NCBI GenBank assembly: GCA_030685235.1
Contig: MU839271.1
Location: forward strand, 1-58,500
Origin: Copromyces sp. CBS 386.78
Lineage: Eukaryota > Ascomycota > Sordariomycetes > Sordariales > Sordariaceae
DNA: 58,500 nucleotides
Direction: 5' to 3'
The notes under the pieces are model-generated. The model did not search any database. It was not told the DNA's origin and was given only the letters and a program-made list of their open reading frames with translations. Made by a program: the position numbers and the translations under genes. Of the stretch, positions 1,909 to 45,274 are shown one piece after another. Numbering within the stretch: position 1 is the stretch's first letter; every line of letters starts with the position of its first letter.

Positions 1909-2345
1909 AGTATAAAAGAAATATAATCCTGGAAAGTAATTGTATTAATCTTATAGTCTATATTTACTACGTAGGAATATAAGAAATCGTTGCCGAATAA
2001 AATATTAGGTTCGAATTTATCTATTACCTAAGTTCCCTTCTTAAATTTTATCAAAGTTAGATAGCCTTCTTTATCGAAACCTTTTAAATAGACTTCGAAC
2101 GTAGCCTATTTAATTATTTTTATTACTCTATTACTAATTCCCTTAACTTTAATATACTTAACGTCGATACTATATACAAATATATTTAGGAAAGGCCTAC
2201 CGATTAAAGTTCTTCCTATTCTTAAGTCTATATAGACTTCGCTTATTTTACTTTTTAAATTAGGGCGAACGTTAACGCTTATATACGTAAAATTAGAAAT
2301 AAAGTTATTATCGATTTTAATTAATATTATTTATAGGGCTCCTTT
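1909..2345 (-). pseudogene. gypsy G2 protease region, RIP-degraded
   Basis: Minus-strand translation resembles the aspartic-protease domain following gag in fungal Ty3/gypsy elements, with recognisable stretches such as DLRIGRTLIGRPFLN and, nearer its end, GNDFLYSYVVNIDYKINT. Several TAA/TAG stops interrupt it. The frame ends at 1905 where LINE L4 is inserted. RT and integrase of G2 would lie further left, outside the window. The catalytic Asp-Ser-Gly was not located, so the domain assignment is by overall pattern. Confidence 0.6.
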
Positions 2346-4423
2346 TATTTAGAGGGGGGAAAATAACCTAATAATTAGTAGGGGGGAGACGCGCGGAATA
2401 AAGCATAATTTGTCCCCTACTAATTTACTTACTTAAATTAATTGATATATTTTTAAATGCCTAAAGAAAACATTTTATAATATTAGTATTTTTCTATAGT
2501 AATTGCAAATTCGTTATTCTAGAGCTAAAAGAAATAGTATACAGAAACGTTCGGCCTTTACGGCCTTCAAGGTAGTATATAATATTTTATACTATTATCT
2601 TTTAATTTTAGTACTAATACTTTTATAGTATTTACAATATCTTTTAAACGTTATTTATATAACGAAATAAACGTTTCCAAATTTACTATTATCCGAATTA
2701 TTGTTTTAAACTTCTATATCTATTATTTTTATAATGTAGTTTACTTAATAAAACCTATAATTATAATTTAGATCCTTATTACAATTTCTATCGCAACTAT
2801 AGTCCTTACTCCCATTATAGTTTCAATTATTATTATTATTTCTATCGCGGTTATAATTCCGGTTATAGTTATTATAGCCGTTATAATTATTATAGTTGCG
2901 GTCCCCGTCTTAGTTACGGTTACGATTACGATCCTTATTTCTATCCGAACAATTGCTTCGATTATCGTTTTTACGGTCGGAAAAACCGCGGTTCCTATTG
3001 CGTTTAAAATCGTTAAATCCTAATTTAGCGGTTACAATTAATATAGCGTTCGCTCTAAATATTTCTATTATATAATCTAAAAGCTCCTTTCTATCGATTA
3101 GGGCTTTAGAATATTATTTTATACAAAGGTCGAAGTTTGACCAAATTTATATTATAATGCTGTATTAATTTAATATTAAATCTTGGCCTATAGTATTTAT
3201 TGCGCGAATATACCGAAGCTACTTCTATACGTATAGGGTAAAAGTCATTTCGTTTCTATTAATTTTATATAATAAGAAGTAGCTATAGTTGAATTTAATT
3301 ATATCCGTAGTAGCGTTTAATTTAAATTAGTCTATTAATTTATTAAATAAAATATAAATCCCGTCTTTAATTGAGCTTTTCTTATTAAATATATTAATCT
3401 CGGTTAACTACTAGACTTTAACGGATCCCCCTAATAGGGTATAAAATATTTTTACTATTTACCGGCCTATTTTATTATTAATTCCATTATTTACGAAGGA
3501 TAAACTTATTCACTAAAAGTATAGATATCTATATAAGTATTACCCTTTAAGTCGGTAATAATACTAATATTATCGGGGTTTAACGCCGTAGGGTTGAAGA
3601 AGCCAATTTCCTCTTTTTTTAATTTTTTAATATTCTTCCTCCTCTTCGTCGTCGGTAAAATTAAGATTATTTTTCTATAATTAATATTACAAAAGTCGCT
3701 TTCGTTCTTCTTACTATTTCCATTACCTTTACTATTTACGCTATTACGCTAGGTAAAAGTAGGGTTATTCTCTTGCCTAAACGCGGTCCGGGCAATTCGT
3801 ATTTAGAAGGTAGGAAGCTTATTCTTTCCCTAATAATCGTTTACCTAATCTTCTACGGAAATCGGGGTATATCTCTCGCCCGTTACCTTTAACCAGTTTA
3901 TAATAGTTAAAGGAAATATATGATATAAATAGAAAATATTGAATTGAAATTCGAAGTAGTAGTAATTACGAAAGTCGAACGAAGGGTTAGCCAAAATATA
4001 TATTATACTATAGAAATAACTATAATTAATATTAAAGATATATAATTATTCGGTAAATAGAATCGGTTTAAATAATAAATTTTTAGCTTTAAAGTTTCCT
4101 TATTTAATATAATTAAATAGCTAAAATTTAAATTTAAAACCCGTAATAAAGGGAACTAAAGCCGCCTTAAGTTCTACGTAGCGTTCTACTTATATTAGTT
4201 TAAACTATACGTTTTAAACCGGTATAGAGGAAGTTCGAAGGGGGGCGCTAATAACTTGCGGTACAGATAATCTATTTCGAATAGAAATTTTACTATAAAC
4301 TAAGCGAGGGGATTCGGGTATATCCTCTAATATAGTACGAAATTTATTATACAGTACAATTTTATTCGAAGGAAACTAATTACGTAACGTTAATTTCGAC
4401 GTAAATAATCTTTCGCTTTATAA
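2346..4423 (-). pseudogene. gypsy G2 gag (C-terminal and middle part)
   Basis: Degenerate minus-strand gag. A low-complexity Asn/Arg/Tyr-rich segment at about 2760-2990 resembles the Asn/Gly-rich C-terminus of gag in G3 (about 48600-48750). Stops are frequent throughout and no reading frame above 60 codons survives. The frame is interrupted at 4423/4424 by HelA and seems to resume at 42831. Assignment rests on order (gag upstream of a protease-like frame) and composition. Confidence 0.5.
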
Positions 4424-4508
4424 TTGAAACGCCCATCCTTCTACCGTGGAAGCGCTGAGGTCGGGCTCACCAAAGGTGTTATAGAAGAACCGCACCAAAG
4501 GTCGTGGT

Positions 4509-5399: not shown

Positions 5400-5419
5400 A
5401 AAAACGACGCCGAAACCGG

Positions 5420-7560
5420 AAACGCCGATTTCTAGTCAGGAAGTGCTCCAAAACGAAAACCGATAACGGCAATCGACTTAAGAGGGTTATTTACCCCCTC
5501 CGCGATATCTTGCAACGATAATAACGATAGTATTAAGCCGTCGCTACCGATAACGATTAATAAAAATGCAAATAGGTTTGAAAATAGCGTCCATAACCCC
5601 TTCGAAAGCATTTTAGGATACAACGACCCTAACGCCGCACTTACTACAAAGATTTCGGAGAAGATAAAGGAAGATAATAAAATTATAAAGAAATTTATTG
5701 CTATAACGAATAAAACTACAAACTACGCCGCTGTAACGACCGACGACCGTTATTAAGTTCGAGAATTCCTTTTCGAATTCGCGAAAACTTTTACAAAGAA
5801 AAGTAGGTCCAAAATACCTAAAGTAAATAAGGCCGCCGAAGCCTAATTTATTATTAGGAAGGATATTAATAATTTAAAGAAATTTATTTCGAAGGAAATA
5901 AAGAAAAATATTTAAGAAGCGCCGAAGAAATAGGTTAATATTGTCCGGAAATCGTTAAATAGGGTTAGTACTTCCCTCTACTACTTACTTACCATTATTA
6001 TTAAAAAATTTATCCCTTCTAATTACAAACGCTAATTTACTATTAAAAGGGTTTAAATTACCGCCGAATTTACTATACGTTCGAACGATAATATAAAGAG
6101 AATGTCTTTTCGCACCGTAGCGAATGTCTTTTCGCACCGTTATCAAAAATACCACCAAGTATAACTTTACCAAACAACAAGTTGTCAGTATGAAGATAAT
6201 ATCAGAATTTTTGTAATTTTCTACTCTATTTTATAGTCCAATTGCTATAAATACATTTATCTAAAGGAAAGACTCAATTCAAATATTCTAAATCTAAAGT
6301 AAATAAATAGTTTTTTCTTCTTTTATTGTATACTAAGGGCTATAGAGGGCGCCTAAATACGCCCAACACATCATATTATACAAGAAAAATAAATAAAAAT
6401 TCCGATGTACTTTTTATATGCTACGGCCTTAATTTGGCTAAGTTACCTCTAAAAGCCTTTTTTAATTACGGTGCGAAAAGACATTTGCTACGGTGCGAAA
6501 AGACTTTCTCAATATAAAATAGGCCGTCGAAGGCGCCTTAAAAGAGAATCTATATAAAATAGTCCGCGCAACTATTAAGATAGTAACGAACGGAAACTAC
6601 GTAATTATCTTTAACGAACTAATTAAAAATTAATATTAGAAGTATTAAATTTAAATTAAAAAAGTCTTTAGAAAAGAGGCCGTTATATCCTTAAATATTA
6701 TAGCCCTTTTAATTAAAGGAGTCTCGTAGGCTAATATTAATACGAAATAACCTAAATCGGTTATATAGGAAATAAGGGAAAAAAATAAGGAGGCGGAAAT
6801 TATTCGGGCTAAACTTTAAAAGAGATACAAAGGGGAGGAGAGAAAAATACTCTTAATAGAAATCGCGACTACGAAAGCTATAATTTTCCTCTAAGAGAAT
6901 TTTTTCCTCTAGGACGGCGGTATATACGTATACGAATTATTCTAAATTACGGCTTCCGCCCAATAGTATTTTAAATATTAGTATTTTGGATATATAGCGA
7001 AATTCTATCGCTAGGAGGACGCTTATAACCGTTATAATAAAATTAAATATAAAGGGCCGTATATAGGAAAAGAGAATTACCTTTCGAATAAGGATAATTC
7101 CCTAATTTTTTGTAAACTATATAGGAAATCGGGGTATTCGCTTTCAATAAAAAGAAATACCTACTTATAAGAATAATTTACGCGAAAGCATTTATCGACT
7201 ACGTTGAAAGGCCTTATAATTTTATTATTTACAAAGGATTAATTAAACTAGTATTAAAGCCGACAATAGAATTGGAAAAGGATATTATAATCCCCAACGC
7301 CCCCTTTAATTCCTATTTAATTACGACTTTAAAGAAATTATTTATAGGAAGAGGAAAAAGAGGCCGTTCTAAGAAGATTAGAGGCGGCTTTCGGCCGAAA
7401 TTTATAAGTATAAACTTAATAAATATTTATATCCACTCCTAGAATGTAAGCGACTATACCCGTACTAATTCTATCGTTATTATACCTTCGGCCGCCACTA
7501 TTACCTTTAAAGAAACAATACCCCCCTAGCCCGCCGCTAGATTAAAAGGAAGCCTTTTAT
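5420..7560 (+). pseudogene. L1 ORF1, gag-like
   Basis: Degenerate first frame of LINE L1, interrupted by MITE M1 at 6098-6510. Near its end (about 7450-7520) a decayed CCHC zinc-knuckle pattern can be read in which several Cys codons are now Tyr. Tad-type ORF1 proteins bind nucleic acid through such knuckles. No frame longer than about 60 codons survives. The 63-codon frame at 6326-6517 lies in M1 and is not a gene. Confidence 0.55.
6098..6510 (+). mobile_element. MITE M1, hAT-like, 8-bp TSD
   Basis: 413-bp element with about 43-bp TIRs (6098-6140 and 6468-6510) and TSD AATATAAA at 6090-6097 and 6511-6518. LINE L4 has the same site without the element. Each TIR contains two tandem copies of a unit ending CTTTTCGCACCGT. 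TIRs begin GAG, as in M2-M4. No transposase frame. An 8-bp TSD fits the hAT superfamily; Mutator-like elements (8-11 bp) are less likely with such short TIRs. Confidence 0.88.
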
Positions 7561-7649
7561 ACAGTAATTAATAATTTAATTAAAAATATTCTATTAGAAT
7601 ATAGGGAAATTGTACGAAAGAGGGAAAACGCTATTCGAATAGGAAGAGA

Positions 7650-10600
7650 CCTATAATATTATAGTAATTTAAAAACCGGGTAAAAATTTAAATAAGGATA
7701 TTTACCGGCTGAAGAACGGTAGATATTATAATATCGATTATTTAGAGAAAGGTAAAATAATAATTTACGTAAATAAGAAGTAGAATTTAAAAGACCTAAA
7801 TTTCCGGGTTAAGAAAAATTAGACTACGGCAATATTAAAGAATCTACGAAAACCGATAACCGTTTACTCTATTTACTCCTTTATCTTCTTTTAAGGTACG
7901 CTAAAATATTAATAGGGGTTTCCCCTCCTCGAACTCCTCAAAGAAAGACCTCCGGCCGGCTAATATATAATTATAGGGGACTATAACCTCTATTACCCTA
8001 ATTAGAATTTGGAAAATAGAATTAGCCCGGGCACTGTAAAATTATTTACGTAGGTACGGCAATAGAAATTTAACTTCGTTACCTCTTATAAGGAATTAAT
8101 AAGGTTTAAAAATATAATTAGAAGAGAGAAAAATAAAATAGTTAATTATATATAAGTTTTATAGGGTATTGAAGTCGAATATTAGGGAATACAACGGTAC
8201 GGGTAAACGGGTTCGGACTATTACCCTTAAAAAGTCTAAATTTAAATAAAAAAAAAGAAATAGGAAAGCGGAAATAAAGGAAAAGTTTAATTAGAATTTT
8301 ATAAACGCGGAAAAGGTACGGGAAGCGGTAGAAAAACGAATATCAATCCTAAGGGGGATCGAAACGGTAGAGGAATTCGAGCTAGGATTTAACAAGTTTA
8401 ACGGCGAATTTATCAATATTGCGGAAGAATTTATCTTATACTAAAAGAGAGGTTAGGGAAAATAAATAGATTAATAGAATTTAAAATATAAAATAATAAC
8501 AAAGGAAATATAGCGGAAATAATAAATTTAATTTAGGAATTAAATACCTTTAAATTAAAGAGAATTTATAGAAGCGGCGATAAAAAAGAAGAAATTTATT
8601 ATAAAGATTTAGAGAACGAAGCAATATAATTATATTATAAGCGTATTAAAAGACCCAAATAAATTTTAATTATTAAAAAAGTAGGCTAAAATATAAAACT
8701 ATTACCCAATAAATCCGCTAAAATTACTACCCTTCAAATAAAACGAGCGGGCGAACGAAGTCGAAGATTATAGTAGTAAAATAAATATCCTTGCCGACCG
8801 TTTCTTCCCGAAAGTAGAAGTCCTAACAAATTATTTACTAAATTAAATTTAATTATTAAATAGTAATACCCTAATACCTATTAATAACTTAATTATTAAG
8901 GAGGATATTTAGGAAATCTTTTCGAAGATAGCGCTTAATAAAGTACCGGGTATCGATTAATTCTTAAATAAATTCTTAAAAATATATAGGGAATTATTTA
9001 AATAGGCGATAGCAGCTTTTGCTATAGCGAGCCTCCGGTTCGGATATTTCCCCTAATAGTTTAAAAATACGAAAATAATTATTCTTAAAAAACTTAGAAA
9101 AAGCGCCGAATAATAAAAATTAGCCGGGGTATAGTAGCTTATATCGCTTTTAAATAATATTAGAAAAATCTTCGAAGCCTTTATAGCTAAGAAGTTAACG
9201 TAAGTAGCGGAAGAGTATAATTTCCTCCCGGAAGGTTAAATAGGCAACTAAATAAGCCGTTTAACCGAATTCGCCGTCCGAATAATTATTAATACAATTT
9301 ATATAATATAAAAGCTTAAAGCTATAACGTTTCTTATACTCTTCGATCTAAAAAGCGTATTTAATAAAATTAATTATAAATAACTCTTATATACGCTATA
9401 GGAAATATAATTCCCAAAATAAATCCTCTAATAAATTAATAATTTCGTTACCGGAAAAAAAAGTTCTCTTTTCTTCGATAATAAAATTTCCTAACTTTAT
9501 AATATCGTAGTAAACGTATTATAAAGTTCCCCCCTCTTATTAATCCTTTTATTCTCTTTATTACCTTATTATACTACAAATTAACTACTATCTAAAATAT
9601 AATTACCGTTAGCTTTACCGATAATACTAATATTATCGCAATAGTTAAAATTACCGAAGAAAATTATTAAACGCTCTAAATAATATAGGATATTTATTCG
9701 GGTTAAGTAATTAAAAGAAAGATAAAATTCGAAATAAATAAAATAGAATTTATATATTTTATACGGACGAAGGAATTAAGAACGGAAATTCTCCGAATTA
9801 AAGGAATCGTATTTAAATTAATAGAATCGATTGAATTCTTTAGGGTTTAGCTAAATTAGAAATTTAATTACTGAATATACGCGGAGGTAATAAAAAAAAA
9901 GATAATTATATAAATAAATATACTAATATAATTAGTAGCGAAAATTTAGGGTTACTCTTTTATATAAGCGAAAGAAATTTATACTAAGTATATTCGGAGT
10001 ATAATCGTATATAGAGTATCAACCTTCTATTAACCGACTAAAATCTATAGTAAATTACGAAAAATAGTAATTAAATTAATTAAATACTAAACTAAATATT
10101 TAAGAATTATCGCCGGGGCGTATAAAGCTATATTAATAAAGAATTTAAAAATGGAAACCTTTTATCTACCGTTCGACCTCTATTTTAATAAACGGGTTAG
10201 AACCTTCGAAAAAAGGTTTACCCATACAAATTAAATAGGGTTCGTCTAAAGGATTATAATTTAAATAATTAACTGTATTTAAATAAGGAGAGTAAAAAGT
10301 CGGCTACCCGCCGATAAATTAAAAAGCAATACTACTAAAGTTAAATAGACTAAAGAATAAATACTAATAAAGAAACTTCTAGTAATTATAATAAATTTAC
10401 CCCTAATAATGGAAGCGCTGCCGCTCCTATTATAAGTATTAAAATTAACTATTATAAATTATAAAAGGTAATTAAAAGAAGTAATAATAAGAAAATAGGT
10501 ATTATATTATAACTACTAATTAGCGGTGGTAGTAATTAAATTAGGCCGACGGTACGAATTTACTATCGCCGACTTTAATCTAAAATTTAGCAATAATATT

Positions 10601-12500
10601 ATAAAATAATATATAGTTAATATAAAAATAAAAAAAAGAAGGCTTAATAACCGGAAGATAATAACGAATAATACTTATTATTTAAAACGAAGAATTCCTT
10701 TCTTACCTAAGTAAAGACAAAGGTTATAAACTTCCGATCCTTCTTCTTCCGGAAGAAAATTCTAGATATTATAACGCTAATCTATTCTTATAATATAAGT
10801 AAAAAAACTTTTATATATATTGTCCTAAACTATTTATAAATAGCCGACTATTAAATAATAATAACTAATTAGCCATAAACGAAAGAAAAATTCTAAATTT
10901 ATTTGGACGATAAAACCCGAATTAAAAGAATCCTTTCGTAAATATTATAATTTAGTAAATTAAATAAATACTGTTTAATAATCGCATTAGAAGGAGAGTA
11001 GCATAATAAATTCGCGTAATATTCGTAAATATATTCAATTATAATATTAGAATAAAAGAATATAAGAAAGACGGGAAGAAGAGGAATTAAATTATACTAA
11101 TTATAATAATTATTTAATTACGAAAATAATACTAAAATAATTAATTAACGTTCTTTGTAAACGAAGAGTTCGCGGAATATATTAAATATTAACTCTTAAT
11201 GTTTAATAATTTTACAATATTATTAAACTTAATCTTCATTAGCTGGAGGGGGATTAATAGGGCTATTAATTATTATTAAAGAACTAATATTAATATTTCC
11301 TCTATTAAAACCGAAAACGGGAACGGAAGGACAATCGGCCAAGAATATCTTACAATATCCTTTATATTAGTAATCTTCGACCTTTATATTCTAATAGCGA
11401 AGAAAGATATTAAAATTATACGGGAGACCGTCCGCAATTAAATATTTACGTACGTTCTTAAAGAAATTAATATAACTATTATAAAAACGACGAATTAAAG
11501 GACCGATATTATTCTAAGAATAGAATAAAATAATAACCGTAATTTAAACGGCGTTATATTTATTATAATAACTTAACGGAATATTTAATATATATTTCGT
11601 ATTAGTAATAAAATAAGTAACGCTCTATTTACCGGTATTTCGAAGAATATTAAAAAAGAAAACGAAAAAAAAACCGCAAGAGGAAATTTACTTTTAATAT
11701 TAACGTAATAAATATACTCTACGAAGAATATATAAAATATAATTATATTAAAGGATAGGGTATTATAAATATAATCGGTAAATTTTAAACTATAATAAAA
11801 GTAGGGAACGTAATAGATAATACTATTAATATAATTAGTAGGGAAAAGGGGAAATAAACGTAAAAATAAGAAGGACTTATCAGCCGGGAACAAAGTTAAA
11901 GGCGGGGTTAAAAATTAATACCCGGATAAAGGCCTAGAATTCGGGCGCTAGGGAAAAAGGGGACGTAGGGGAATAAAAGAATTTAAAGGACAAGGAATCT
12001 ATTATACGGACAAAATCGATATTATACTCAATATACTACAATTAATACAAATCGCAAAGCCTAAAAGGTTGGATATATAGCCGGGAAAACGGTCGGGAGT
12101 ATAGCTAATAGAAGAGGACGCTATCTTAAAAATTAGTTAAATAAGGAAAAAGGGAAAATTCGAAAAAATAGCGGCGGGGAGGAGTTCTTATATAGAAGGA
12201 AAGAAAGGGCCCTTACGCTTATACAAACTTTAATAGAGTTAAAGGAATTTAAAGATAATAACGAAGCGGAAATAAAAATAAACGATAAGGAAGGGACAAT
12301 TACTATAAGCGGTTTAGGAAGAAGGAGCGGCGTACGAAAGCGGTATTTTAATTATTCTAATATTGGATCGAAGGCGGTAGAAGGGAAGTAGCTTATTTAT
12401 TAAAGTAGTAAGTAAATACCGCTATAAATAGAATCGAAATAGAGCAGGCGCGATTTATTCGCGACCGAAAGGAGTTAGCGGTTTTTATTTAACGGCGCTT
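7650..12500 (+). pseudogene. L1 ORF2, endonuclease-reverse transcriptase
   Basis: Degenerate ORF2 of LINE L1. The RT active site can be read at 9611-9640 as SFTDNTNIIA, where LINE RTs have F-x-D-D; the second Asp is now Asn. About 100 bp upstream (9500-9545) the translation preserves a decayed QGSPL motif. An endonuclease domain is expected at about 7650-8300 but was not resolved residue by residue. The distal part (10500-12400) is where RNase H and a C-terminal knuckle would lie, and it is too decayed to call. The 102-codon minus frame at 11585-11893 is a shadow of this region. Confidence 0.7.
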
Positions 12501-12595
12501 ATCGCCGTACAGTTTCCTCTAGAGAACTAGGAAAAGTACCCCATGCAAATAAAGCGCTATAGATAAGTAGTATAGGGAATAAGACTATTATTATA

Positions 12596-14958: not shown

Positions 14959-15180
14959 TTTTTGAAACGCCTACTCCTCCACTAAGCTTCGTCGTCGGGC
15001 CCACCCCTAGGGTGCCACAATTGGATCCGCACTAGAGGTCGTGGTCCGTGGGCCTACTACGAAGCGATGGAAGGAGCGGCGGTTCTGTCTATAGTGATCC
15101 GAGTGCAAATAATTGCGGAGCTTATATTCTTAATCGGGAAATTTTGCGACTCAGCTAAATTCGAGGCCTGTGTATATAGT
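14959..15180 (+). repeat. HelB 5' terminal block
   Basis: Uninterrupted copy of the Helitron 5' terminal sequence shared with HelA and HelC. GC-richer and much less RIP-mutated than what follows. The site GTGGTCCGTG near 15030 is where G1 split the HelA copy. Confidence 0.82.
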
Positions 15181-17700
15181 TAGAATATTGTATTTAATAT
15201 CGTATTTATTGTAATATTGTACAATAATAATAATAAGTATTTGTATTAAAAATTTATTATTGTGCGCATCGTAATTATTTTATTATATATTCCGTTTTGT
15301 ACGAAGATATATGTTAAAATGCGGTCGTAGTTTTATTGTAAACGTCGTTTTCTATGCAATGCTTGCGATTGTGATACTTGCGATTGTGGTCCTGTGATTC
15401 GGCTTACGTGCTTAGATCCTTTATGTGTTGCCGGAATTCTAATTCTCCCGGCAATTCGCTATTTCGGTTTGCTGGCAATTCCCTTTCGCGGCAATTCGCT
15501 AACGTTAATAAGCCGATAAGACGTTATATAAATACTTTTTATATTTTCTATTTTTTAATTTAATTAATATAAATATTAATACTAATAATACTATTTCTTT
15601 TATTATTATATTTCTATTGTATAATATTAGAAATTATTTCGACACTTTGAAATTTATTGATTTTAAACCTTTAAACGATTATATAATTATTTGTACGGGT
15701 TTTATTAAAGTGTACGTATTGCTTTTAAATTGTGTTTGTAGCGTATATTGAGGAAGGCGTACGATTGCTATTTTAAGAATATTATTTTATATTTTTTAAT
15801 ATTAATAAAGTAATTACGATTCCTTTTACCGATTATTATTCCAATTGGTAGCCTGATAGCCCGCCCGTCGTAGCCTGTTACTTAGTTAGTAAATTAGCGA
15901 CCTTACTAAGAATTTTAGTAATAATCGATTCCTTCTACCCTAACCTTTATTATTATTATTATTACCGCCTTTATCTTTTCCCCTTTAATATTAATATTGT
16001 TATTTATAATAAATAAATAATTGCGATTATTTAGATCTACTTAGAATTTCTTTAATAGTTAAACCGTTAGGAAATTTCTAGTACTTATTGGCTCCTTCCT
16101 AGAAAAATATAAGAACCCCCCTCCCTCCTCCTTTTCTATCCTTTAAATTTTTTCTTCTTTATTATATAATATAATTTTATTTCTGAGATTAATTTATTTT
16201 AATTTCGGAAATCTTTTAATAGGTTATTGAAAACCCGGAGGTAATTAAGATTAGCGTTTAGATTTTAGGTGATTGTACCCTCGGGTTAATCCTCCTCTTA
16301 TTGTATATCGCTCCCTTCGTATCGTTTCTCCTATCCCTTCTTTTTTTACCTACTAATTTTATTATTAATAATAGGGAATGAGAAAGTTAAGGTCTATTAT
16401 TATTGAAGTGCCAATATTATTGAAAGGGTATTAATCCGGTAAATTTCCCGTTCCCTTGCCCTTTATTTATCCTTTAATTTATTTAGTTTATTAATTTCTT
16501 TTTTTTTCTTTTATATAGGCGACGAACGACGAAGTTAATGATTGTATTAATATTATTACTCATTTTGGTTAATATTATTTTTATTTTTAGTTAATATTGT
16601 TATTATTTCTTAGTTAATATTTATACCGACTAGCGTTTTCGATTTTATTAATGTAAATTTGCGGCGGTATATTGTATTAAATAGCTACTGTAGGAGAAAA
16701 AAGATATTCCCGCCTATAGTTAGGAAAGTAAATATTAATTATATTAATTTAGAATAGGAATTTAACGTATTCCTCTTTTAGTTAATATCTTTTTAATATC
16801 GATATTTAATCGTATTAGATAGTTAGAATTTTATTTTGAAGAGTGGCTGGACGAAGATATTAATATTGATATATTGTTGTAAGGTTTATTTAGTTGAAGT
16901 TAGAAGAGCGATGTTATTATCCTATTTCTTTTTAGTTTTTTAGCTTTTATTTTTTCTATTTATTAGTTAAAGTATTACGATTTAGTCTTATATTTAATTA
17001 TTTATTTAGTTAGATAGTTAATTAAAATCGATTTAAATTAATAGTTTAAGCCGCTGCCGCTTAGTAATTAGCAAATAATATAAAAGTATAGTACTTATAC
17101 AAAGATTAAACCTATTTAAATATTTGTTAGGAACCGAAATCCTAATATTTATATTATAATATGCGATGTTTATTGTAATAAAGTAATAAATTAATATTAC
17201 CTCTTTCTTTTATTTCTTTACTGTTCCTTTCTCTTTTTATTCGTCAATTAGCTAACTAGTATTATCTATTTAACGGTAAATCCTTTAAAATACGTAAATC
17301 CTATATAGAGTCTTAGTATACTGTATTGTTCTACTACTTATGGGTGAATAGTACTTTCGAAGGTAAAAATTTAGGCCGCGGGGGGTTATGGGTGCGATTT
17401 AAGTAATATTGGTTAGTTAGTTATTTAGTTAGTAGTTGAAATAATTAATATTTCTTTACATATAAATTCTTAAGAATAAGCGCGGCTCTATTAAATCTAT
17501 AGTTTCCAATGTTATATTAATAATTATTGGTAGTAAGAAACTCCTTGCCGATACCCTATTTTCTTTATTAAAAGAAGGTTGTATTAAGTGTAATTAATAT
17601 TTATTAATTCCCTAAAAATTTTATAATACCGTTTAACCCCCCTAAACTCCGGCTTTAGCTCCGGCTCCGGCTTCGGCTCCGGCTCCGGTTCTAGCTCTGG
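15181..17700 (+). other. HelB leader, no gene recognised
   Basis: AT-rich, stop-rich sequence with short repeats: TGCGATTGTG-type units near 15360-15400, four GGCAATTC-type units at 15430-15510, and a CCGGCT hexamer run at about 17650-17700. The 61-codon frame at 15378-15563 spans these repeats and is not supported as a gene. It may hold the promoter and 5' end of the Rep/helicase gene. Confidence 0.5.
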
Positions 17701-29134: not shown

Positions 29135-29139
29135 GTATA

Positions 29140-30201: not shown

Positions 30202-30206
30202 AGTTG

Positions 30207-31800: not shown

Positions 31801-31914
31801 AGACTTTATAAAAGTATTACTAGTAGACTACTATATTTAAGAAGAGGGTAGTTTATAGATATTTTAAAGGATATATTTAGGAAGTTTAGACTATAAGTAG
31901 TCTCTTGCCTTTAA

Positions 31915-32035
31915 ATATTAAAAAAAAGGAAGGAGGTAATAATTAGAAGGAGGTAATAATTGGAAGGAGTATCCGGTAAATAGAAGGAGTATTTAGTATA
32001 TAGAAAGAGTATTTAGTATATAGTAGTTTGTATGT
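31915..32035. repeat. About 20-bp minisatellite in HelB
   Basis: Five to six imperfect units of GGAAGGAGTATTTAGTAAATA type after the helicase gene. The reverse-complement motif occurs at the equivalent place in HelE (50395-50550). Confidence 0.8.
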
Positions 32036-32148
32036 AATTCTATTATTTAAATTCATATTCCCCTTCTCTCTTCTTTTATTATTCATTAACCGTCAACTAT
32101 TAATACCGTTACCCCAATCGTTTATTAACTATTATCGTCGTTACTGTT

Positions 32149-32349
32149 ACTATAGCCGTCTTTCCTAAAATTAATAACCTTTAGGCCGCCCAATTCTAGG
32201 CCTCGACTATTATTTTCGAGATTGATATATTGGAAGAGGCTGTCTATAAAATTTTCGAACCGGTTATTAAGTGCTATAGAATTGGAAATGGGGAATAAGT
32301 TAACGCTACTTTTATTATTATCGCTAGTAACCCTAACTCCCGCTATAAG
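32149..32349 (+). pseudogene. HelB conserved downstream frame (unknown)
   Basis: Frame of about 67 codons, two internal TAG and one TAA, downstream of the helicase gene and minisatellite. Readable blocks are PKINNL, STIIFEIDILEEAVYKIFE, VIKCYRIGNGE and NATFIIIASNPNSRYK. The matching frame in HelE (50096-50300, minus) shares KINN, IIFE, IFE, IKC.RIGN and ATFIII in the same order, and its internal stop after GN-x-x is at the same place. Conservation at amino-acid level through RIP suggests a real protein once. I do not recognise the family. Confidence 0.6.
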
Positions 32350-33060
32350 ATTTTAAATAGTTATTATTGGACTACCGCTATTACTATTATTAATACTATA
32401 GAATTGCCTCCCTTTCTAAATTTCTCCCTCCTTCTCCTAATTTGTTTTAAAAGGTTATAAGGTAAGAAAATACCCCTCCTAAAAAAAAAGGAGTTTAATA
32501 CGGCTTATTTTGCGTACCCTAGTCGAATCGCTTTATAAATACTTTGTTATAGTAGTAGGGCACCTGTTTATAGCGACCTGAAAGATAGTACGTTTTATAG
32601 CGTGCTTATATCTCCTCCCTTAATTAGGACCCTCCCCGCGCTAATAGCTAACCGGACTAGATTTTAGGTACTAGGGAAGTAAGGAGGTAATAGGAGGGTG
32701 AAAAGAGGGTAATATAGAGATAGGAATAGATAGAAATGGAAAAAAATAATTATAATAGTTATAGATAGGATTCGAATAAAGGGTTTCTACGATTTACGAT
32801 TTACAAGTAGAGATATATAAGCGTCCTTATATATTACTATACTATAAGCGTCCTTATAGTACCCTTTGTCAGGGGTTGGTGATAGTTACGATAGGAGTTT
32901 AAGGTTATAAAGATGGTTAGAGGTGGTTTTGCGAGTTTTAGGATTGTTTCTAATAATAATGTGGTTTGGGAGATGTTTTCGGAATTGGGTAATATTTGGT
33001 GATGTTGATAAAGGTTAGAATTATAATGTGGATCCAGTTTTATAGTGTAAAAATGCGTTT
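32350..33060 (+). other. HelB 3' region, no gene recognised
   Basis: AT-rich sequence between the small conserved frame and the 3' terminal hairpin, with two short repeats GCGTCCTTATA (32820-32860). The last 200 bp are TG-rich rather than TA-rich, i.e. less RIP-mutated on this strand. No coding signal seen. Confidence 0.5.
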
Positions 33061-33066
33061 ACCGTG

Positions 33067-33115
33067 GGCGTTTCACTGTCTTCCTTGGCATTAGGCTCTG
33101 CCTAAGGAAAGATTA
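33067..33115 (+). repeat. Helitron 3' terminus of HelB with hairpin
   Basis: Terminal block GGGCGTTTCACTG, then an imperfect hairpin (arms around CTTCCTTGG and CTAAGGAAAG), ending GATTA before host T at 33116. Same block at 42779-42830 (HelA) and 58129-58182 (HelD, minus). Confidence 0.82.
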
Positions 33116-33692
33116 TGTTATTAAACGTACTAATAATATTAAGTTTAATAAAGATCTTCGCTTTGTAAATAGCGTTAAAGTTTTTTTTAATTAATATAAT
33201 TAAATATTATATTTTTAAAGTAATGTTATTAATATTATAATAATTAATATAGATATAGCCTCCCTTATTTAATTTCTATATTAATAGGATAGGCGAAGCG
33301 GCGGCGGATTAGAAGGGACGGATGAATCTTTTTAAAATTCTCGTTAATTTACTTTTTAATAACGGTAGTTTCGATAAGTAATATCGGTCTAAGCTTGGCG
33401 TATAATAATTACTCTCTTAATTTAAATTCGATCTTATAATTATATAAACGGTACAGGGGTATTTTACCGGTTAATACGGGAAGAAAAGCATTGATATATA
33501 ATTAATAATAATTTATTAATATCCCTTTTATTTTTTCCCTAATTTTTTAAAGCCTATTTATTTTATCGAAGAATTTTTAAATGTTTTTTTCCATTACTTT
33601 TATTAAATAAATACAACGGATAGTCTTTTTATAGAGCGGTACGTCTTTAGTTAAATCCCCTATTAAAGCGATAGATTTAGCGATTACCGCCG
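33116..33692 (-). pseudogene. G1 reverse transcriptase, N-terminal half
   Basis: Minus-strand gypsy RT upstream of the HelB insertion. Near 33400-33480 it reads YKIEFKLREQLLYAKLRPI, matching the conserved DHkIeLkpGa.Ppy..ry block; near 33130-33170 a decayed KlD..sAFNNI block ends the segment. The next residues (R/V-K-E-G) are at 14950. It is cut upstream at 33697 by Sb. The R3-type sequence directly to its left belongs to HelB. Confidence 0.85.
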
Positions 33693-33697: not shown

Positions 33698-35812
33698 TGT
33701 CATGGGGCTAGCGCCCTGGGGTCTGGGACCTAGCTAATGCCAGGTCATAGCCTGCGAGGGTTCTGGTTCGGCTGCCCCGGCCTTAGCACGGTACATAAAA
33801 CCCTCGTTCTAGACTGTACCTTCTATGCAATCTTTCCTTCCTTTTCTTCTTTATCAAATATAGCCTTTTCAACTTTATACGACTGCTCGCTATACCTTAC
33901 TCTTACAGACCTATTACATCATATTTGACCCTCTTTTTAAGTACCTCCGTTACTATTCTCCCGTAGGCACGCCTAAAAGTCCCCCGCCGCTACAATATCT
34001 TAACAACAGCTCCCGCAAGTACCTTAGGCTAATACTTCGCCAAAGCAATACCGACATTTCGCTTCATTTATCGAACAACTCATCGCTAAAATCGCTACCT
34101 TCAAAGCGTCTCCCTCCCCTCTGCCCAATTCGCCTACTAAGAAGCTAGTCCTCCCGCATTTCGAAAAATTTTCTAGGGATAAAGTAAACTTCGAAATTTA
34201 AATATTTAACGCTTATACTAAATTCTATATTAACGGCCTCGCTATCGGCGATACAAAAGCGTAATTTTACTATTTACTCGCCTGCCTTTCGCCTTCTATT
34301 AAGCGCCCTCTCGTCGTATTTTCTAATACCCCCTCCTCTCGCTCGCCGATCGCCCTTATTAATAAGCTTCGCCTTACTTACGATATTATTAATATAAGCA
34401 AAAAGGCTAGCTAAGAATTCGCCGCTATACGCTAGCAATCTTATAAGTCCGTCGCTATCTTTCTAATTCAATATAAGGAAGTGTTTTATAGAGCGTAGGC
34501 CAATTCGTAGCCCGATGTAGCGAAAATTAACTCGCTAACCTACGCGTTAAACACAAAGTAGAAATAACGCCTCGCCGACTGTATCGACGTGCCCGAGCAA
34601 TACCTAGACCTATTTACGTACTTACGAAAACTTAACGGCAATACCTTTCTTTTAGCCTCCTCCTCCTTATCGAAGTAGGTTATAATTGATAATAACGCTG
34701 GTAATCCTATAGATACCTCTATCAACGCTACGGTAGCTTCGCCGTCTCAGAAGCAGAAGAACCGGTGGAAGAAGGAGGGCAAGTGCACCAACTATAGGAG
34801 TAGCTCCCACTAGTTCAAATAGTGCAAAAAGACGAGGATGAATAATATACAGCTCAATTCGGTTGGGGGCGCAGGTAGTTACAACGATGATAGCCAAGAA
34901 GAAGATACAAACTAAGCAGTTATTACATCGCTAGATAGCAACGCCCTAGCAAGACTACAATAGAGAGAAGTCTGCACGTCCGCACAGGAGGGATCTCTAC
35001 AGCTGTTGGAGCACGGCGTCTACTGGTCAAATGGCTGGTCAGCCTCCTTCCACCTCTCCATGCGTAGCCAGTTGGAAGCTGGTGTCTACTACAAAACGCA
35101 ACCGCAGGAGGGTAGGAGACGTAACATTTCGTAAGCACAAAATTCACTAAGCCCGTCCCTGGCGAGGGATTTACGGTAGTAATAGGAGGGGCTCCTACTA
35201 GCAGGAGAAGCAGAGCGATACAAAGCACTAGGTAATAGCCGTAATTCTAACTGTCAACCGAGCATAAATTTACAACGCGGCAGAAGAGGTTCCTAGATGG
35301 GCACGGTCTAGATATATTCCCTAATTTAGTCTTGGTTCCCGTACACTGGGAGCAGCTCTATAAGGGTAGTACCTCGCAAGGGCACCACCGACTCGGGTAG
35401 GGAGCAGGTGGTCGTGCAGCGTTTGTTTGGGGGCTCAGTTTGTGGATATTTCTTGGTGTTGTTGATTTCTTCCCCATTCCTGTGCGTTAGGTTGGGAGTG
35501 ACTGGGCTGGATTTTCTTTTTTTCTCGTGTAATTAGCTGCTGGTTCATTTGTGCGCAGGGCCGCGCTCCCCGAGGGGGAGCAGGGGGGTAATATCATGGG
35601 GCTAGCGCCCTGGGCTCTGGGACCTAGCTGATGCCAAGTCATGGCCTGCGAGGGTTCTGGTTCGGCTGCCCCGGCCTTGGCACGGTGCATAAAACCCTCG
35701 TTCCAGACTGCACCTTCTGTGCAGTCTTTCCTTCCTTTTCTTCCTTGTCAAATATAGCCTTTTCAACCTTACACGACTGCTCGCTGTGCCTTACTCTTGC
35801 AGACCCGTTACA
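33698..35812 (+). mobile_element. Gag-only LTR retrotransposon Sb
   Basis: 2,115-bp element with 221-bp LTRs (33698-33918, 35592-35812) and TSD CCTCC (33693-33697, 35813-35817). Polypurine tract GAGGGGGAGCAGGGGGG before the 3' LTR. A gag-like frame with one zinc knuckle occupies 33960-34850; 34850-35590 is non-coding and unusually GC-rich. No pol. The 3' LTR is nearly unmutated, whereas the 5' LTR and gag carry RIP changes. It splits G1 between RT and the upstream region. The 60-100-codon frames at 34540-35879 lie in this element's LTRs and 3' region and are not genes. Confidence 0.92.
33960..34850 (+). pseudogene. Sb gag-like frame with zinc knuckle
   Basis: Degenerate plus-strand gag. HFEKFS...VNFEI near 34155-34205, FYYLLACLSPSIKRPL near 34270-34315, then a basic stretch KQKNRWKKEGK (34750-34782) and a CCHC knuckle at 34783-34824. 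The knuckle reads C-x2-Y-x4-H-x4-C: the second Cys is Tyr (TAT), a C:G to T:A change. Residues flanking the knuckle include stops from CAG/CAA. Same blocks occur in Sa and Sc. Confidence 0.78.
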
Positions 35813-38178: not shown

Positions 38179-38496
38179 CTTACCTAACAATATAAGGGTT
38201 AAAGTTACTATAGTATGATAGTTATACAACGGTTTCTATATCTACTACGGTTATAGATTTGGATAGGGTGGTGCAACGGTTTAATGAGCTGCAACCGTGT
38301 TGCAACTGTCCTGCAACCGTTGCAAGATCTGCAACCATAGGATTTTTGTACATATGACGTAATTACCAAAAAATTCCTTAGCACAGAAAATTCACAAGGG
38401 GAAATTACGAGGGTCACACAGGGAAATCGCGAATTTAAGCTAATAAATCTTTTTTTTTTTTTTTTTTTTTTTAATTCGAAAAGAATAAAAAATTTT

Positions 38497-38566
38497 GTTA
38501 CAGCGAGGAATCGAACAATAGTCTGAAGATAAAGAACTACTTTATTAACCACTTGGCCACTAGGCC
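38497..38566 (-). pseudogene. tRNA-derived sequence in T1
   Basis: Minus-strand tRNA-like stretch with box A TGGCCAAGTGG and box B close to GTTCGATTCC, about 40 bp apart, followed by T-rich and then poly(A) sequence. The acceptor arm does not pair, so it is a SINE-like relic and not a functional tRNA. The A-box context resembles class II (Ser/Leu) tRNAs, but no anticodon can be assigned. Confidence 0.6.
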
Positions 38567-38640
38567 AAATTTCTTAACCAAATGGCTGGTTTTTGTTTCT
38601 TATAAAGGGGAAGTTCGATATTATTATTTTTTTATTTCTA

Positions 38641-38808
38641 AAGACCCGTTCGGTAAATTTTTTTTAAACTAAGATTTCTCGTTAAATAGAGGGCGCACGG
38701 ACCACTAGCCGGGTACAAAATAACCGCCAAGAAATGGCGCTCATTTTAATACCCTTTTAATTTTCAGGGTTAGGGTTATTAGTAAAGAAAAAAACTTGGT
38801 CCTTTTTG
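38641..38808 (-). repeat. R1 repeat copy in T1
   Basis: Same repeat as 163-327, lying between the tRNA-like sequence and the right TIR of T1, minus orientation. Confidence 0.8.
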
Positions 38809-39063
38809 CTTCCTTAAGTTCGATATTAAAGGAGGAAGGTAGGAAGGAAGGATTTTAAAAATTTTTCGAGGAAGGTGGGTCCAATTACGTTATGTATGTA
38901 AAAATCCTATGGTTGCAGATATTGCAACCGTTGCAGTACGGTTGCAGATGTTGCAACGGTTGCAGTACGGTTGCAAAATTTTTTTTAACGTTGCACCACT
39001 GCTGCAGATGTTAGAAACCGTTGTACAACTATAAAAGCATTCCTATATACCCTTAGCTAAGTA

Positions 39064-40335: not shown

Positions 40336-40753
40336 GAGCGATTCTACTCGCATCGTAGGGAAACTCTATTCGCACTGTAAAACGAAAAGAAAATCTAAAG
40401 TTTCTCTATAGGTAGAGGGGCTCTAAGTACGCATATTAGCCTAGATTTTTCCTTATTTTTTCCTTTATTTTCCAAGCCTCACATCACTTGTCTACGCTAT
40501 ATATAAACTCTTAAAGTCGAAGGTGCTTAGAAGTATTAGAATTTAAGACTACAAAAGTTAAATATAAGAAAAACCTAGCCGATTTAAGAGTGGCAAAAGG
40601 CCTAGAGTAGATTGAAAAATCTATGAATATTTAAGAAGTATTTTAGTCCTACTTTCATCTTTATATACCTTATTTTCACCGAGATAAACGTAGAAGTTTA
40701 AATTTTATTGACGGTGCGAATAGAGTTTCCCTACGGTGCGAGTAGAGTCGCTC
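40336..40753 (+). mobile_element. MITE M2, 8-bp TSD
   Basis: 418-bp element with about 48-bp TIRs beginning GAGCGA and TSD TTTAATTA (40328-40335 and 40754-40761). The TIR has two tandem units ending CTCGCACCGT and ATTCGCACCGT, aligned position by position with M1 (413 bp), so M1 and M2 belong to one family. No transposase frame. Confidence 0.87.
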
Positions 40754-40809: not shown

Positions 40810-41572
40810 GAGAAAGTCTAACCGGACGGTCACGAATGTCTATCCGTACGGTGATCCACTTTTTCCCTCACACATATCCCTAACCCTCGCGCGGCCACAG
40901 ATGTTATATGTATTCTTTTGAAAATTTCGTCTAGAAATCTGGGCATTACTATTCTTTTACGCGTAACATCAGACCGTGACAGTTACTGATAGCCGTGATA
41001 ATTGCTGATAGCTGTGACAGCCGTAATAGCCGTAATAGTCGCTGACAGCCATGACAATCGCTGACAGCCGTAATAGCCGTGACAATCGCTAATAGCTGTA
41101 ATAGCCGTGACAGCCGTGATAGCCGTGATAGTCGCTGACAGCCGTGACAATCGCTGACAGCCAATCGCTAATAGCCGTAACAATTACTAACAGCCGTAAT
41201 AATCGTTGACAGCTGTAATAGCCGTGACAGCCGTGACAGCCGTGACAGCCGTGACAGCCGTGATAGCCGTGATAGTTGTGACAGCTGTGATAGTCGCTGA
41301 TAGCCGTGACAGCCGTGACAGCCGTGACAGTCGTTGATAGCCGTAATAATCGCTAACAGCTAATCACTAATAGCCGTGACAGGTGCGTATCTAGTCTGGG
41401 CACTGCGGTCTGATGTTACGTATGAAAGAATGGTAATGCCTAGATTTCTGAGCGAAATTTTCGAAAGAATACATGTGACATTTGTAGCCGCGTGAGGGTT
41501 AGGGATATGTGTGAGGGAAAAAGTGGATCACTGTACGGATAGACATTTATGACCGTACGGTTAGACTTTCTC
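40810..41572 (+). mobile_element. MITE M3 with internal minisatellite
   Basis: 763-bp element with about 170-bp TIRs beginning GAGAAAGTCTAACCG and TSD TTTAAAAA (40802-40809, 41573-41580). The TIR has two tandem units (GTCTAACCG.ACGGT and GTCTATCCGTACGGT), echoing M1/M2 architecture. The centre is a 9-bp minisatellite. The TIR contains CCCTAACCCTCGCGCGG near 40880, which is not telomeric. Minus-strand frames at 40949-41183 are minisatellite translations. Confidence 0.88.
40977..41385. repeat. 9-bp minisatellite (CAGCCGTGA)n
   Basis: About 40 imperfect units of CAGCCGTGA with variants such as TAGCCGTAA and CAATCGCTGA. Variation is mostly C/T and G/A. Unit length and absence of unique spacers exclude a CRISPR array. 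Confidence 0.88.
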
Positions 41573-41988: not shown

Positions 41989-42673
41989 GAGACTCCCTCG
42001 GCGGGCAGTGCCACTTCCATATACGGGCAGTGCCTAATAGCCCGTATAGGGAACTTTATATAGGGATCCCTCTACGGGCAGTGCTATAGTAATCCCTAAC
42101 CCTTTAAAAATCTTCTCTTCACTAATATTAGACTCTTCCCCTTCCTCGTCGTTATATAGGTCGTCGTCGCTATCCTTTTACACTTGAATAGAAGTAGGGA
42201 TAAGCAGTAAGATAGGAGAAGTAAGTATAAACTCGTCTCTACTATTAGTATATTAGGTACTAGAATTGCTACTAATGTTGATAACGGATATACTATTAAA
42301 AGAAAAATGTTTAGTAAATAGATTAGCGCAATACAGCGAACGTACTAACGTTGAAATCGTATTAATATAAAGCGTTTTAGTAGAATTATAAAGTCTTATT
42401 ACTATATTTATTAACGGTTATTACAAAGAAATTGGGCAATTTTATAATAGTTATACTGCAAATTGCAATCTTACAATAATTATACTACAAATTACAATCT
42501 TACAATAGCTATAAATCGCTAAATTCAACGTTGTAGCCGCTAAGCAACCATCATTTTATAGGGTTAGGAATTACTATGGCACTGCCCGTATAGGAAACCC
42601 TATATAGGTTCCCTATACGGGCTATTAGGCACTGCCCGTATATGGAAGTGGCACTGCCCGCCGAGGGAGTCTC
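41989..42673 (+). mobile_element. MITE M4, 8-bp TSD
   Basis: 685-bp element with about 115-bp TIRs starting GAGACTCCCTCGGCGGGC and TSD TTAATTAA (41981-41988, 42674-42681). TIRs contain three spaced CGGGCAGTGC units and an internal palindrome around AGCCCGTATAGGG. The interior (about 42110-42530) is AT-rich and stop-rich, with a direct repeat of ATTACAATCTTACAATA near 42460-42505. It sits at the same R1 site as M2. Confidence 0.87.
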
Positions 42674-42860: not shown

Positions 42861-45006
42861 TGTCATGGGGCTGAGAGCCCAGGGGTTGTAACCTGGTGGA
42901 TACCAGGTCATAGCCATCTGCGAAGGCTCTGGCTCGGCTGCCCTAGCCTTGGCACGGTGCACAAAACCCTCGTTCCAGACTGCACCTTCTATATAGTCTT
43001 TCCTTCCTTTTCTTCCTTATCAAATATAGCATTTCAACCTTATACAACTACTCGCTATACCTTACTCTTACAAACCCGTTATATTATATTTAACCCTCTT
43101 TTCAACGACCTCGTACTATCACCTACACGCCGTAAGAGTCTCTCCCTCCCCCGCCATCACGATATTTCAATAATCTCTCTAAATCTTATAGTCGCCTAAC
43201 TCTTAAAAACGGCACCATCAATTTGCTTCGTCTATCGAACAAATCATTACTAAGATTGCAACTCTCAAAATATTATCCTCCCCTCTACCCAACTCGCTTA
43301 CTCGAAAGCTAGTCTTCCCCTATTTTGAAAAATTTTCCGGGGAAAAAGCAGACTTTAAAACCTAAGTATTTAATACCTAAATTAAATTCTATATTAATAG
43401 CTTCGCTATCGGCGACTCTAAAGCGCAATTTTATTACCTATTCGGCAGCCTATCGCCCGCCGTTAAACGCCTATTCGTCGCTTTCGCCTCCTCCGCTTCC
43501 CCTCGTTCGCTATAAAACTTTTTCAACAAGCTCCAACTTACTTACAACAATCCAAACCTTAAAAAACGCGCCGGCTAAGAATTCGCTACTATCCGCCAAA
43601 AAAAATAAAGAAGGCATCACAACCTTCCTAATCCATTATAAAAAAGTATTCTACCAAACCTACGCCGACTCCTAACTAAACGCCGTAAAAGTTAATTCAC
43701 TAATTTATACGCTTACCGACTATTAGAAACAATAGTTTAATAATCGTACTAATATTCCCGAATAATACCTAAACTTATTTATATATTTATAAAAACTTAA
43801 TAGTAATACCTTTCTTTTAGCTTCCTCCTCCTTATTGAAGTAGGCCTAAATTAATAATAATGCTAATAATCCTATAAATACCTCTATTAACGCTATAGTA
43901 GCTTCGCCGTTTTAGAAGTAGAAGAACTAGTAGAAGAAGGAAAATAAATATACTAATTATAGGAGTAACTCCTACTAATTTAAATAGTATAAAAAAACGC
44001 GGTTGAACAACGTTCAACTTAAACCGCTTAAGGGTACAAACGGTTATAATAACGATAATTAAGAGGAGGATATAAATTAAATAATTATTATATTACTAAA
44101 TAGTAACGCTTTAATAAAACTACGGTAGAGGGAGTATTAGACTAGGGATTTGAAAAGAGGAATTTCCGATAGCTAAGAGAGGCGAAGTTATCGCGGCAGA
44201 GATACTAATCGTCTATTACTATAGTAGCGTAGTAAATCCTTATACCGTTACCCCTTTACATATAGCTAATTAGAAGTTAGTATCTACTATAAAACGCAAC
44301 CGTAGGAGGGTAATAAATATAATATTTCGTAAGTATAAAATTATTAAGGTCGCCTCTAGCGAGAGGATAGGAGACAATTCCTACTAGTAAGAGAAGTAAA
44401 GTAATATAAAGTATTAAATAATAGCCGTAATTCTAATTATTAACCGGGCATAAATTTACAATATAGTAAAAGAAATTCCTAAATAAGTACAGTCTAAATA
44501 TATTCCTTAATTTAATTTTAGTTCCCGTATACTAGGAGTAGCTCTATAAAGGTAGTACCTCGCAAGGGCACTACCGACTCAGGTAGGGAGCAGGTGATTA
44601 TACAGCGTTTATTTGGGGATTCAATTTTATAGATACTTTTTTTTAATATTATTAATTTCTTCCCCGTTTTTATACATTAGGTTAGGAGTATCTAGGTTGG
44701 ATTTTCGTTTTTTCTTATATAATTTTAACTACTTAATAATTTATACGCAGGGCCGCGCTTCCTAAAGGGGAGCAGGGGGGTAATATTATAGGGCTAAGAG
44801 CCTAAGGGTTGTAACCTAGTAAATACTAAATTATAGCCATCTGCGAAGGCTCTAGCTCGGCTGCTCCGGCCTTAGTACGGTACACAAAACCCTCGTTCCA
44901 GACTACACCTTCTGTGCAATCTTTCCTTCCTTTTCTTCCTTATCAAATATAGCATTTCAACCTTACACGACTGCTCGCTGTGCCTTACTCTTGCAGACCC
45001 GTTACA
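42861..45006 (+). mobile_element. Gag-only LTR retrotransposon Sc
   Basis: 2,146-bp element with 223-bp LTRs (42861-43083, 44784-45006) and TSD CTAAT (42856-42860, 45007-45011), in gypsy G2. LTRs belong to the Sa/Sb family but differ in the first 70 bp (TGTCATGGGGCTGAGAGCCC instead of CTAGCGCCC), so it is a subfamily. Polypurine tract GGGGAGCAGGGGGG before the 3' LTR. Mutations are unevenly spread: the outer half of the 5' LTR and the inner half of the 3' LTR are cleaner. Confidence 0.92.
43120..44060 (+). pseudogene. Sc gag-like frame
   Basis: Degenerate gag aligned to Sb: FEKFSG near 43325, FYINSFAIGDSKAQFYYLFGSLSPAVK near 43390-43465 (one of the longer surviving blocks), zinc knuckle near 43946-43990 with Cys codons turned to Tyr. 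The 116-codon frame at 43325-43675 starts inside gag and is frameshifted relative to it, so it is a shadow and not the product. Confidence 0.7.
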
Positions 45007-45011
45007 CTAAT

Positions 45012-45274
45012 AATTTCGTCGAATAGTAGGTTTAGGAGTATATAAAGGTTACTATTTAAATTCTTAATTACTACCTTTATAATTTCCTTTATAATTACTC
45101 AGCGAATAGTATTAATTTATTTAAACGTAATTTTCTAACGCCGCTTCCTAGCTAGCCCTTCCATAGGGCTTTAACAATCTTCTTCAATTTAATTATTTAT
45201 TATTGAATATTAATAATCTATTATTAGAAAGAGTTTTTTTATTCTCTAAGCAAACTTTCTAATTAAAGCGCAGC
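45012..45274 (-). pseudogene. G2 gag N-terminus and leader
   Basis: G2 sequence between Sc and the GC-rich island. The minus-strand translation has stretches such as KVVIKNLNSNLYILLNLLFDEII that continue through 42831-42860 toward HelA, supporting one interrupted gag frame. No start codon chosen. Confidence 0.45.

What the first reader, a model, noticed from the sequence alone, without database searches (positions are those of the whole stretch)
1909..45274. Five-layer transposon nest with a readable order of events
Each layer is closed by independent evidence: TSD GTGGT for G1 in HelA; the G1 RT frame broken at 14958/33116 by HelB; TSDs of 15 bp, GTATA and AGTTG for L2, Sa and TRIM in HelB. 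This gives the order G2, then HelA, then G1, then HelB, then L2/Sa/TRIM. Degree of RIP falls inward for TRIM and Sa, but not for L2.
Basis: partly seen in the sequence, partly recalled or inferred. Interest (0 to 1): 0.75.

Follow-up and report, generated by a model that had tools for sequence, protein, structure and literature searches.

The report
Five-layer fungal transposon nest, order confirmed
A stretch of fungal DNA holds jumping genes inserted inside one another five deep; uninterrupted copies elsewhere in the genome confirm the order, and the mutation scars mostly follow how long each element is rather than how deep it sits.

Summary
The nest is real and the order G2, HelA, G1, HelB, then L2/Sa/TRIM is right. 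Joining the flanks at each cut gives sites that run uninterrupted through other family copies in the same genome at 12 of 12 junctions tested (53 copy matches; 8 of 144 shifted decoy cuts had any). A 13th test, G2 across HelA plus Sc, holds in 3 of 4 copies. The finding does not list ten further insertions: L1, M1, Sb, M2, Sc, F1-F3 and, one-ended, L3 and HelC. So at least 16 insertions lie in G2, and the order is partial. HelA and HelB look like Helitron2-type Helitrons.

Two corrections. LTR-LTR differences (126 transitions, 1 transversion in 1101 sites) are nearly all transitions, as RIP makes, so masked dating cannot resolve the layers. RIP does not fall inward: it goes with element length (Spearman 0.69, p 0.005, n 15), not depth (-0.32, p 0.25), though F1 and F3 are exceptions.

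Comparable nests are published for another RIP fungus (PMC4522978; its table of 35 shows at most four layers). A well-resolved example of a known kind.

The parts
1910..4424 (-). G2, outermost LTR-type retroelement, left fragment (continues at 42835-42860 and 45012-45262); RT part lies beyond the window
   Evidence: copies L027, L028, L047, L048; weak RVT_1 in L027
4425..42834 (+). HelA, short (about 1 kb) non-autonomous Helitron2-like element in G2, itself interrupted by G1, F1, F2, F3
   Evidence: ends TGAAACGCC...GGCGTTTCA-hairpin-ACTATGTT; empty G2 site in L048, L027, L047; uninterrupted relative in L048
4509..40051 (-). G1, LTR retroelement in HelA, TSD GTGGT; interrupted by L1, HelB, Sb, M2
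5400..12593 (+). L1, long LINE in G1, 15-bp TSD TAATTAGGAGTCGAA
   Evidence: empty site in 8 distinct G1 copies; TSD; weak RVT_1
6098..6510 (.). M1, hAT-like MITE in L1, 8-bp TSD AATATAAA (layer 5)
   Evidence: empty site in 6 of 6 LINE copies
14963..33119 (+). HelB, about 11.4-kb Helitron2-like element splitting the G1 RT frame; interrupted by L2, Sa, TRIM
   Evidence: empty site in 9 G1 copies; DUF6570 and half of Helitron_like_N, both below cut-off; junction spanned by none of the 40 other matches listed
20820..24869 (-). L2, 5'-truncated LINE in the Rep-domain region of HelB, 16-bp TSD GATTTGCTAGAGTAAT
   Evidence: empty site in 5 of 5 HelB relatives
26976..29134 (-). Sa, 2.16-kb LTR element in HelB, TSD GTATA
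   Evidence: site spanned in 5 of 5 relatives loosely (two with gaps of 18 and 25), 3 of 5 under the strict gap rule
30207..30707 (+). TRIM, 501-bp LTR miniature in HelB, TSD AGTTG
   Evidence: empty site in 5 of 5 relatives, 2 of 5 under the strict gap rule because of indels just left of it
33698..35812 (+). Sb, same family as Sa, in G1, TSD CCTCC
   Evidence: empty site in 7 distinct G1 copies
38179..39061 (.). M2, MITE with TA duplication in G1
   Evidence: empty site in 6 of 6 G1 copies reaching it
40336..40753 (.). F1, hAT-like MITE in HelA, TSD TTTAATTA
   Evidence: L048 uninterrupted
40810..41572 (.). F2, hAT-like foldback in HelA, TSD TTTAAAAA
   Evidence: L048 uninterrupted
41989..42673 (.). 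F3, hAT-like foldback in HelA, TSD TTAATTAA
   Evidence: L048 uninterrupted
42861..45006 (+). Sc, third S-family element, in G2, TSD CTAAT
   Evidence: G2 empty site in L048, L027, L047
864..1908 (-). L3, LINE 5' part abutting G2; inferred insertion in G2, other end cut by HelC
1..863 (-). HelC, Helitron2-like 5' part inside L3, running off the contig start

Best explanation
A gypsy-type element fragment (G2) received successive independent transposon insertions, giving a partial order: G2 before HelA, L3 and Sc; HelA before G1 and F1-F3; G1 before L1, HelB, Sb and M2; L1 before M1; L3 before HelC; HelB before L2, Sa and TRIM. LTR elements entered by integration with 5-bp TSDs, LINEs by target-primed reverse transcription with 15-16 bp TSDs, MITEs by cut-and-paste with 8-bp or TA TSDs, Helitrons by rolling-circle insertion without TSD. 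Insertion order, TSDs and empty sites are shown (L3 and HelC inferred from one end each); the transposition mechanisms are inferred from family knowledge. Elements of about 2 kb or more were afterwards mutated by RIP at every layer; most elements under about 1 kb are lightly marked (shown as a correlation with exceptions; the cause, a RIP length threshold, is inferred).
For: Empty sites in other copies at 12 of 12 junctions, 53 copy hits, against 8 of 144 decoy cuts with any hit; base-level joins; G2 site in 3 of 4 copies; 11 exact TSDs of 5-16 bp; Helitron_like_N matches from position 3 or 4 in four relatives but only 87-163, after L2, in the window; the HelB/G1 junction is spanned by the window alone among 41 listed matches (40 of 396 candidates scored); all six HelB segments share one RIP strand bias that L2 inside it does not.
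Against: G2 has neither end in the window, and what cuts it at about 45262 was not identified. F1-F3 rest on one uninterrupted relative (L048) under the strict rule, and G1-in-HelA on L048 plus a distant Helitron at 71%. The Sa site is AT-rich and indel-prone: 3 of 5 strict, while one Sa decoy matched 8 copies; four of 12 M1 decoys and one each for M2, L2 and TRIM also matched. Copies compared are a sample: 9 of 39 other G1 matches listed (494 candidates), 6 LINE copies out of the 45 matches listed, 5 of 6 other loci matching the whole 3' HelB query.
Confidence: 0.96

Rival explanations
1. Some junctions are assembly chimeras: repeats from different places were wrongly joined.
For: The contig begins and ends in simple repeats and lies in a highly repetitive region.
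Against: A chimera would not create exact 5-16 bp duplications at element ends nor leave flanks that rejoin in other copies. Reads were not available.
Confidence: 0.03
2. Part of the nest was built elsewhere and arrived as a block by segmental duplication, so the events did not all happen here.
For: Nests can be copied with their surroundings (general knowledge).
Against: Of 41 listed matches to the G1/HelB junction only the window's own spans it (40 of 396 candidates scored). Other junctions were not searched this way.
Confidence: 0.05
3. RIP does fall inward because inner elements are younger; length is a coincidence.
For: TRIM at layer 5 is the least RIPped (CRI -0.31). F1 and F3, short but at layer 3, are high (1.00, 0.85). 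Transition/transversion ratios of S and G2 pairs (1.9-7) overlap those of short elements (1.0-3.5, M1 the highest).
Against: L2 and Sa at layer 5 are saturated (1.03, 1.01) and HelA at layer 2 is light (0.43); CRI versus depth rho -0.32, p 0.25; versus length 0.69, p 0.005, n 15. G1 and LINE pairs have ratios of 24-54, HelB 5-9.
Confidence: 0.1

Closest known systems
Nested clusters of Mycosphaerella graminicola (PMC4522978; section on nested blocks and passages read)
   Same: LTR base elements, TSD-verified layers, clusters of 7.5-63 kb, lowered GC; short families without RIP bias, explained there by a length threshold
   Different: The table of 35 LTR-based, TSD-verified clusters (of 78 in all) has at most four layers; here five layers, with two Helitron-like elements as intermediate layers
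FoHeli / Helitron2 elements of Fusarium and other Pezizomycotina (PMC5148889; passages read)
   Same: 3' inverted repeat some 40 bp before the end, hairpin, insertion after TNAT-like sites, short non-autonomous members, RIP marks in one species
   Different: Terminal letters differ (TGAAACGCC...CTATGTT against TCAG...ATTTT or TGCCT...CTCCTGT); about 11.4 kb against about 5-6 kb for FoHeli1/2
REANNOTATE (PMC2672092; abstract and outline read)
   Same: Infers nesting order and LTR ages from defragmented repeats
   Different: My inference: plain LTR dating would mislead here, since nearly all LTR differences are transitions
TR-GAG elements of plants (search listing only; definition recalled)
   Same: S family: LTR pair, 5-bp TSD, short interior that reads gag-like by eye
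   Different: Gag not confirmed by Pfam or protein search (best a PNMA match at E 0.16); host is a fungus

Membership tests
Nested TE cluster | base element continuous once the inserts are set aside | tested here: met
Helitron2 (HelA, HelB) | asymmetric terminal inverted repeat with a 3' hairpin | tested here: met
   TGAAACGCC at the 5' end, GGCGTTTCA 44-47 bp before the 3' end; hairpin folds at -13.6 and -17.1 kcal/mol, no shuffle control
Helitron2 (HelA, HelB) | no TSD, T-rich insertion site | tested here: met
   5 of 8 sites have TTAT before the element, the others TAAT, TTTT, TTGT
Helitron2 (HelB) | Rep and helicase domains | tested here: inconclusive
   Rep half-domain in the window below the cut-off, over it in 3 of the 5 relatives fetched; PIF1 not seen in HelB, seen in one family member on C191
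Helentron | endonuclease domain | tested here: inconclusive
   no endonuclease family in the + strand frames searched, which are RIPped and leave out 32201-33119; not filed here
Ty3/gypsy (G1) | LTRs, TSD, RT followed by RNase H | tested here: met
   RVT_1 itself below its cut-off; that this order marks gypsy is recalled
Ty3/gypsy (G1) | integrase after RNase H | tested here: inconclusive
   no integrase family reached the threshold in the frames searched
LINE (L1, L2) | no LTR, long variable TSD, 5' truncation, RT | tested here: met
   15 and 16 bp TSDs; L2 truncated relative to 6 of 6 copies; RVT_1 in L1 weak, below cut-off
hAT-like MITE (M1, F1-F3) | terminal inverted repeats and 8-bp TSD | tested here: met
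   8-bp TSDs, long inverted arms for F2 and F3; link to a transposase not tested; hAT label recalled
TR-GAG (Sa, Sb, Sc) | gag-only coding | tested here: inconclusive

The most novel reading that the evidence does not exclude
The nest keeps a separate RIP strand imprint for each element (HelB biased to C-to-T on the + strand in all six segments, L2 inside it and most of G1 around it not), so nests could be used to order RIP cycles against insertions, and to show that RIP went on after the last insertion of 2 kb or more.
Probability: 0.3. Interest if true: 0.45.

Novelty: new member of a known kind. Interest (0 to 1): 0.3.

Why it matters
It is a checked stratigraphy of 14 two-ended insertions in a RIP genome. 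It shows that LTR divergence is a poor clock here (126 transitions to 1 transversion) and that RIP load goes with element length rather than layer, a caution for dating transposon bursts in fungi.

Tried and rejected
Rejected: HelA or HelB as canonical Helitrons (no TC start or CTRR end at the termini seen); RIP falling with depth; LTR dating (one transversion in 1101 sites). The first decoy control was flawed because gaps away from the cut were allowed (74 copy hits over 144 decoys, 58 at the 12 true cuts); it was redone with a strict rule (19 copy hits in 8 of 144 decoys, 53 at the 12 true cuts). A search for relatives of the S-family reading frame found none at E 0.001 among 426 candidates. 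What truncates G2 at about 45262 was not solved. Paper searches: one for Helitrons with asymmetrical repeats in Fusarium found nothing under those words, a second found the paper; one for insertion order in RIP nests returned one tool paper. Absolute ages were not given: rates for this fungus are unknown. The organism was not identified.

Full report
The window is the whole of contig C193 of an unnamed 49.8-Mb genome. It is AT-rich, and the only closed stop-to-stop frame of 150 codons or more is on the - strand at 48326-48844.

Structure. Self-comparison and reading gave candidate ends; exact target-site duplications were then found at 11 elements: G1 5 bp, L1 15, M1 8, L2 16, Sa 5, TRIM 5, Sb 5, Sc 5, F1 8, F2 8, F3 8. 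M2 has a TA duplication. HelA and HelB have none.

Test against other copies. Eight G1 copies were fetched, with a ninth, partial one. The six most complete (L011-L016) align to the window in five blocks, about 4508-5402, 12588-14962, 33114-33698, 35812-38181 and 39061-40049, skipping L1, HelB, Sb and M2; L009 and L010 cover parts only. Five HelB relatives skip L2 and, with AT-rich indels, Sa and TRIM; six LINE copies skip M1. L048 holds a G2 copy with another HelA-family element at a different G2 site; that element lacks G1, F1, F2 and F3, and the same G2 copy is continuous across the window's HelA and Sc sites. Strict joined-flank counts, distinct copies: L1/G1 8, HelB/G1 11 (9 G1 plus two distant relatives at 66-70%), Sb/G1 7, M2/G1 6, M1/L1 6, L2/HelB 5, Sa/HelB 3, TRIM/HelB 2, G1/HelA 2 (one a distant Helitron at 71%), F1 1, F2 1, F3 1. 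Decoys: 8 of 144 with any copy: four for M1, one each for M2, L2, TRIM and Sa, the Sa one matching 8 copies. With a looser rule Sa and TRIM are each spanned in 5 of 5, Sa with gaps of 1-25 bases.

What the layers are. HelB carries DUF6570 and the second half of Helitron_like_N, both below cut-off. In four of its five fetched relatives (C8, C91, C81 over the cut-off, C21 below it) the Rep profile matches from position 3 or 4 onward, whereas the window has only 87-163, after L2; the fifth (C4) was not listed. G1 has RVT_1 from position 124 and RNase H. L1 has a weak RVT_1. The ends of HelA, HelB and relatives and their TTAT-like sites fit Helitron2 as described for Fusarium and Chaetomium (PMC5148889, passages read).

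Dates. LTR pairs in the window: G1 51 transitions, 0 transversions of 308 sites; Sa 22/0 of 222; TRIM 2/0 of 129; Sb 19/1 of 221; Sc 32/0 of 221; 82 of the 126 transitions are in CpA/TpG context as scored (28 of 51 in G1). Other copies: G1 277/2 of 1802 sites (6 pairs; one copy gave none), S 143/8 of 1798 (8 pairs), TRIM 6/0 of 215 (2 pairs). Between the window TRIM and four copies there are 106 transitions to 80 transversions, so an excess of transitions like that of the LTR pairs points to RIP, although a third of them lie outside the classic context. Smallest transversion distances among the copies sampled: G1 0.55%, L1 0.34%, L2 0.32%, HelB 1.7%; I read these as upper bounds on age, and they do not conflict with the order.

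RIP. Composite index: G2 1.07, HelA 0.43, G1 1.06, HelB 0.79, L1 1.05, L2 1.03, Sa 1.01, Sb 0.67, Sc 1.03, TRIM -0.31, M1 0.37, M2 0.46, F1 1.00, F2 0.15, F3 0.85; L3 (0.86) and HelC (-0.16), truncated, were left out of the correlation. Length explains it better than depth (values carried over; G2 length taken as 5.3 kb from a copy). F1 and F3, short yet high, go against a clean length rule, and base composition before RIP is unknown. Sb is a mosaic, its right half less mutated. RIP strand bias has one sign in all six HelB segments (C>T index 0.13 to 0.52, G>A -0.13 to -0.44), differs in L2 (-0.25, -0.16) and is near zero in two of three G1 segments, with the short third leaning weakly the HelB way (0.05, -0.19). 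Sa leans the HelB way against some copies and not others. Since RIP acts on homologous stretches (recalled), this does not by itself date RIP against the insertions.

Known context. A RIP fungus with 78 nested clusters of 7.5-63 kb is described in PMC4522978; its table of 35 shows at most four layers (section read), and it explains RIP-free short families by a length threshold (passage). The window adds one layer and Helitron layers, hence a new member of a known kind.

Noticed in passing
46035-46288: A 5'-truncated LINE fragment (LINE 3' end) with a flanking duplication of 22 bp with one mismatch, outside the nest.
   Followed up: partly
49981-51935: A diverged Helitron relic on the - strand: three pieces 67-74% like HelB 30853-32450.
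   Followed up: no
52601-53468: A second M2 copy (86%), inverted, again flanked by TA.
   Followed up: partly
33698-35812: Sb is a RIP mosaic: left half depleted of CpA/TpG, right half and right LTR much less.
   Followed up: partly
L048 3025-4072: A second, uninterrupted HelA-family element inserted in another G2 copy at a different G2 site.
   Followed up: partly
40974-41382: A short tandem repeat (TGACAGCCG-like units) forms the middle of the foldback element F2.
   Followed up: no
45263-45300: An unidentified boundary truncates G2; its copies continue about 0.8 kb further.
   Followed up: partly
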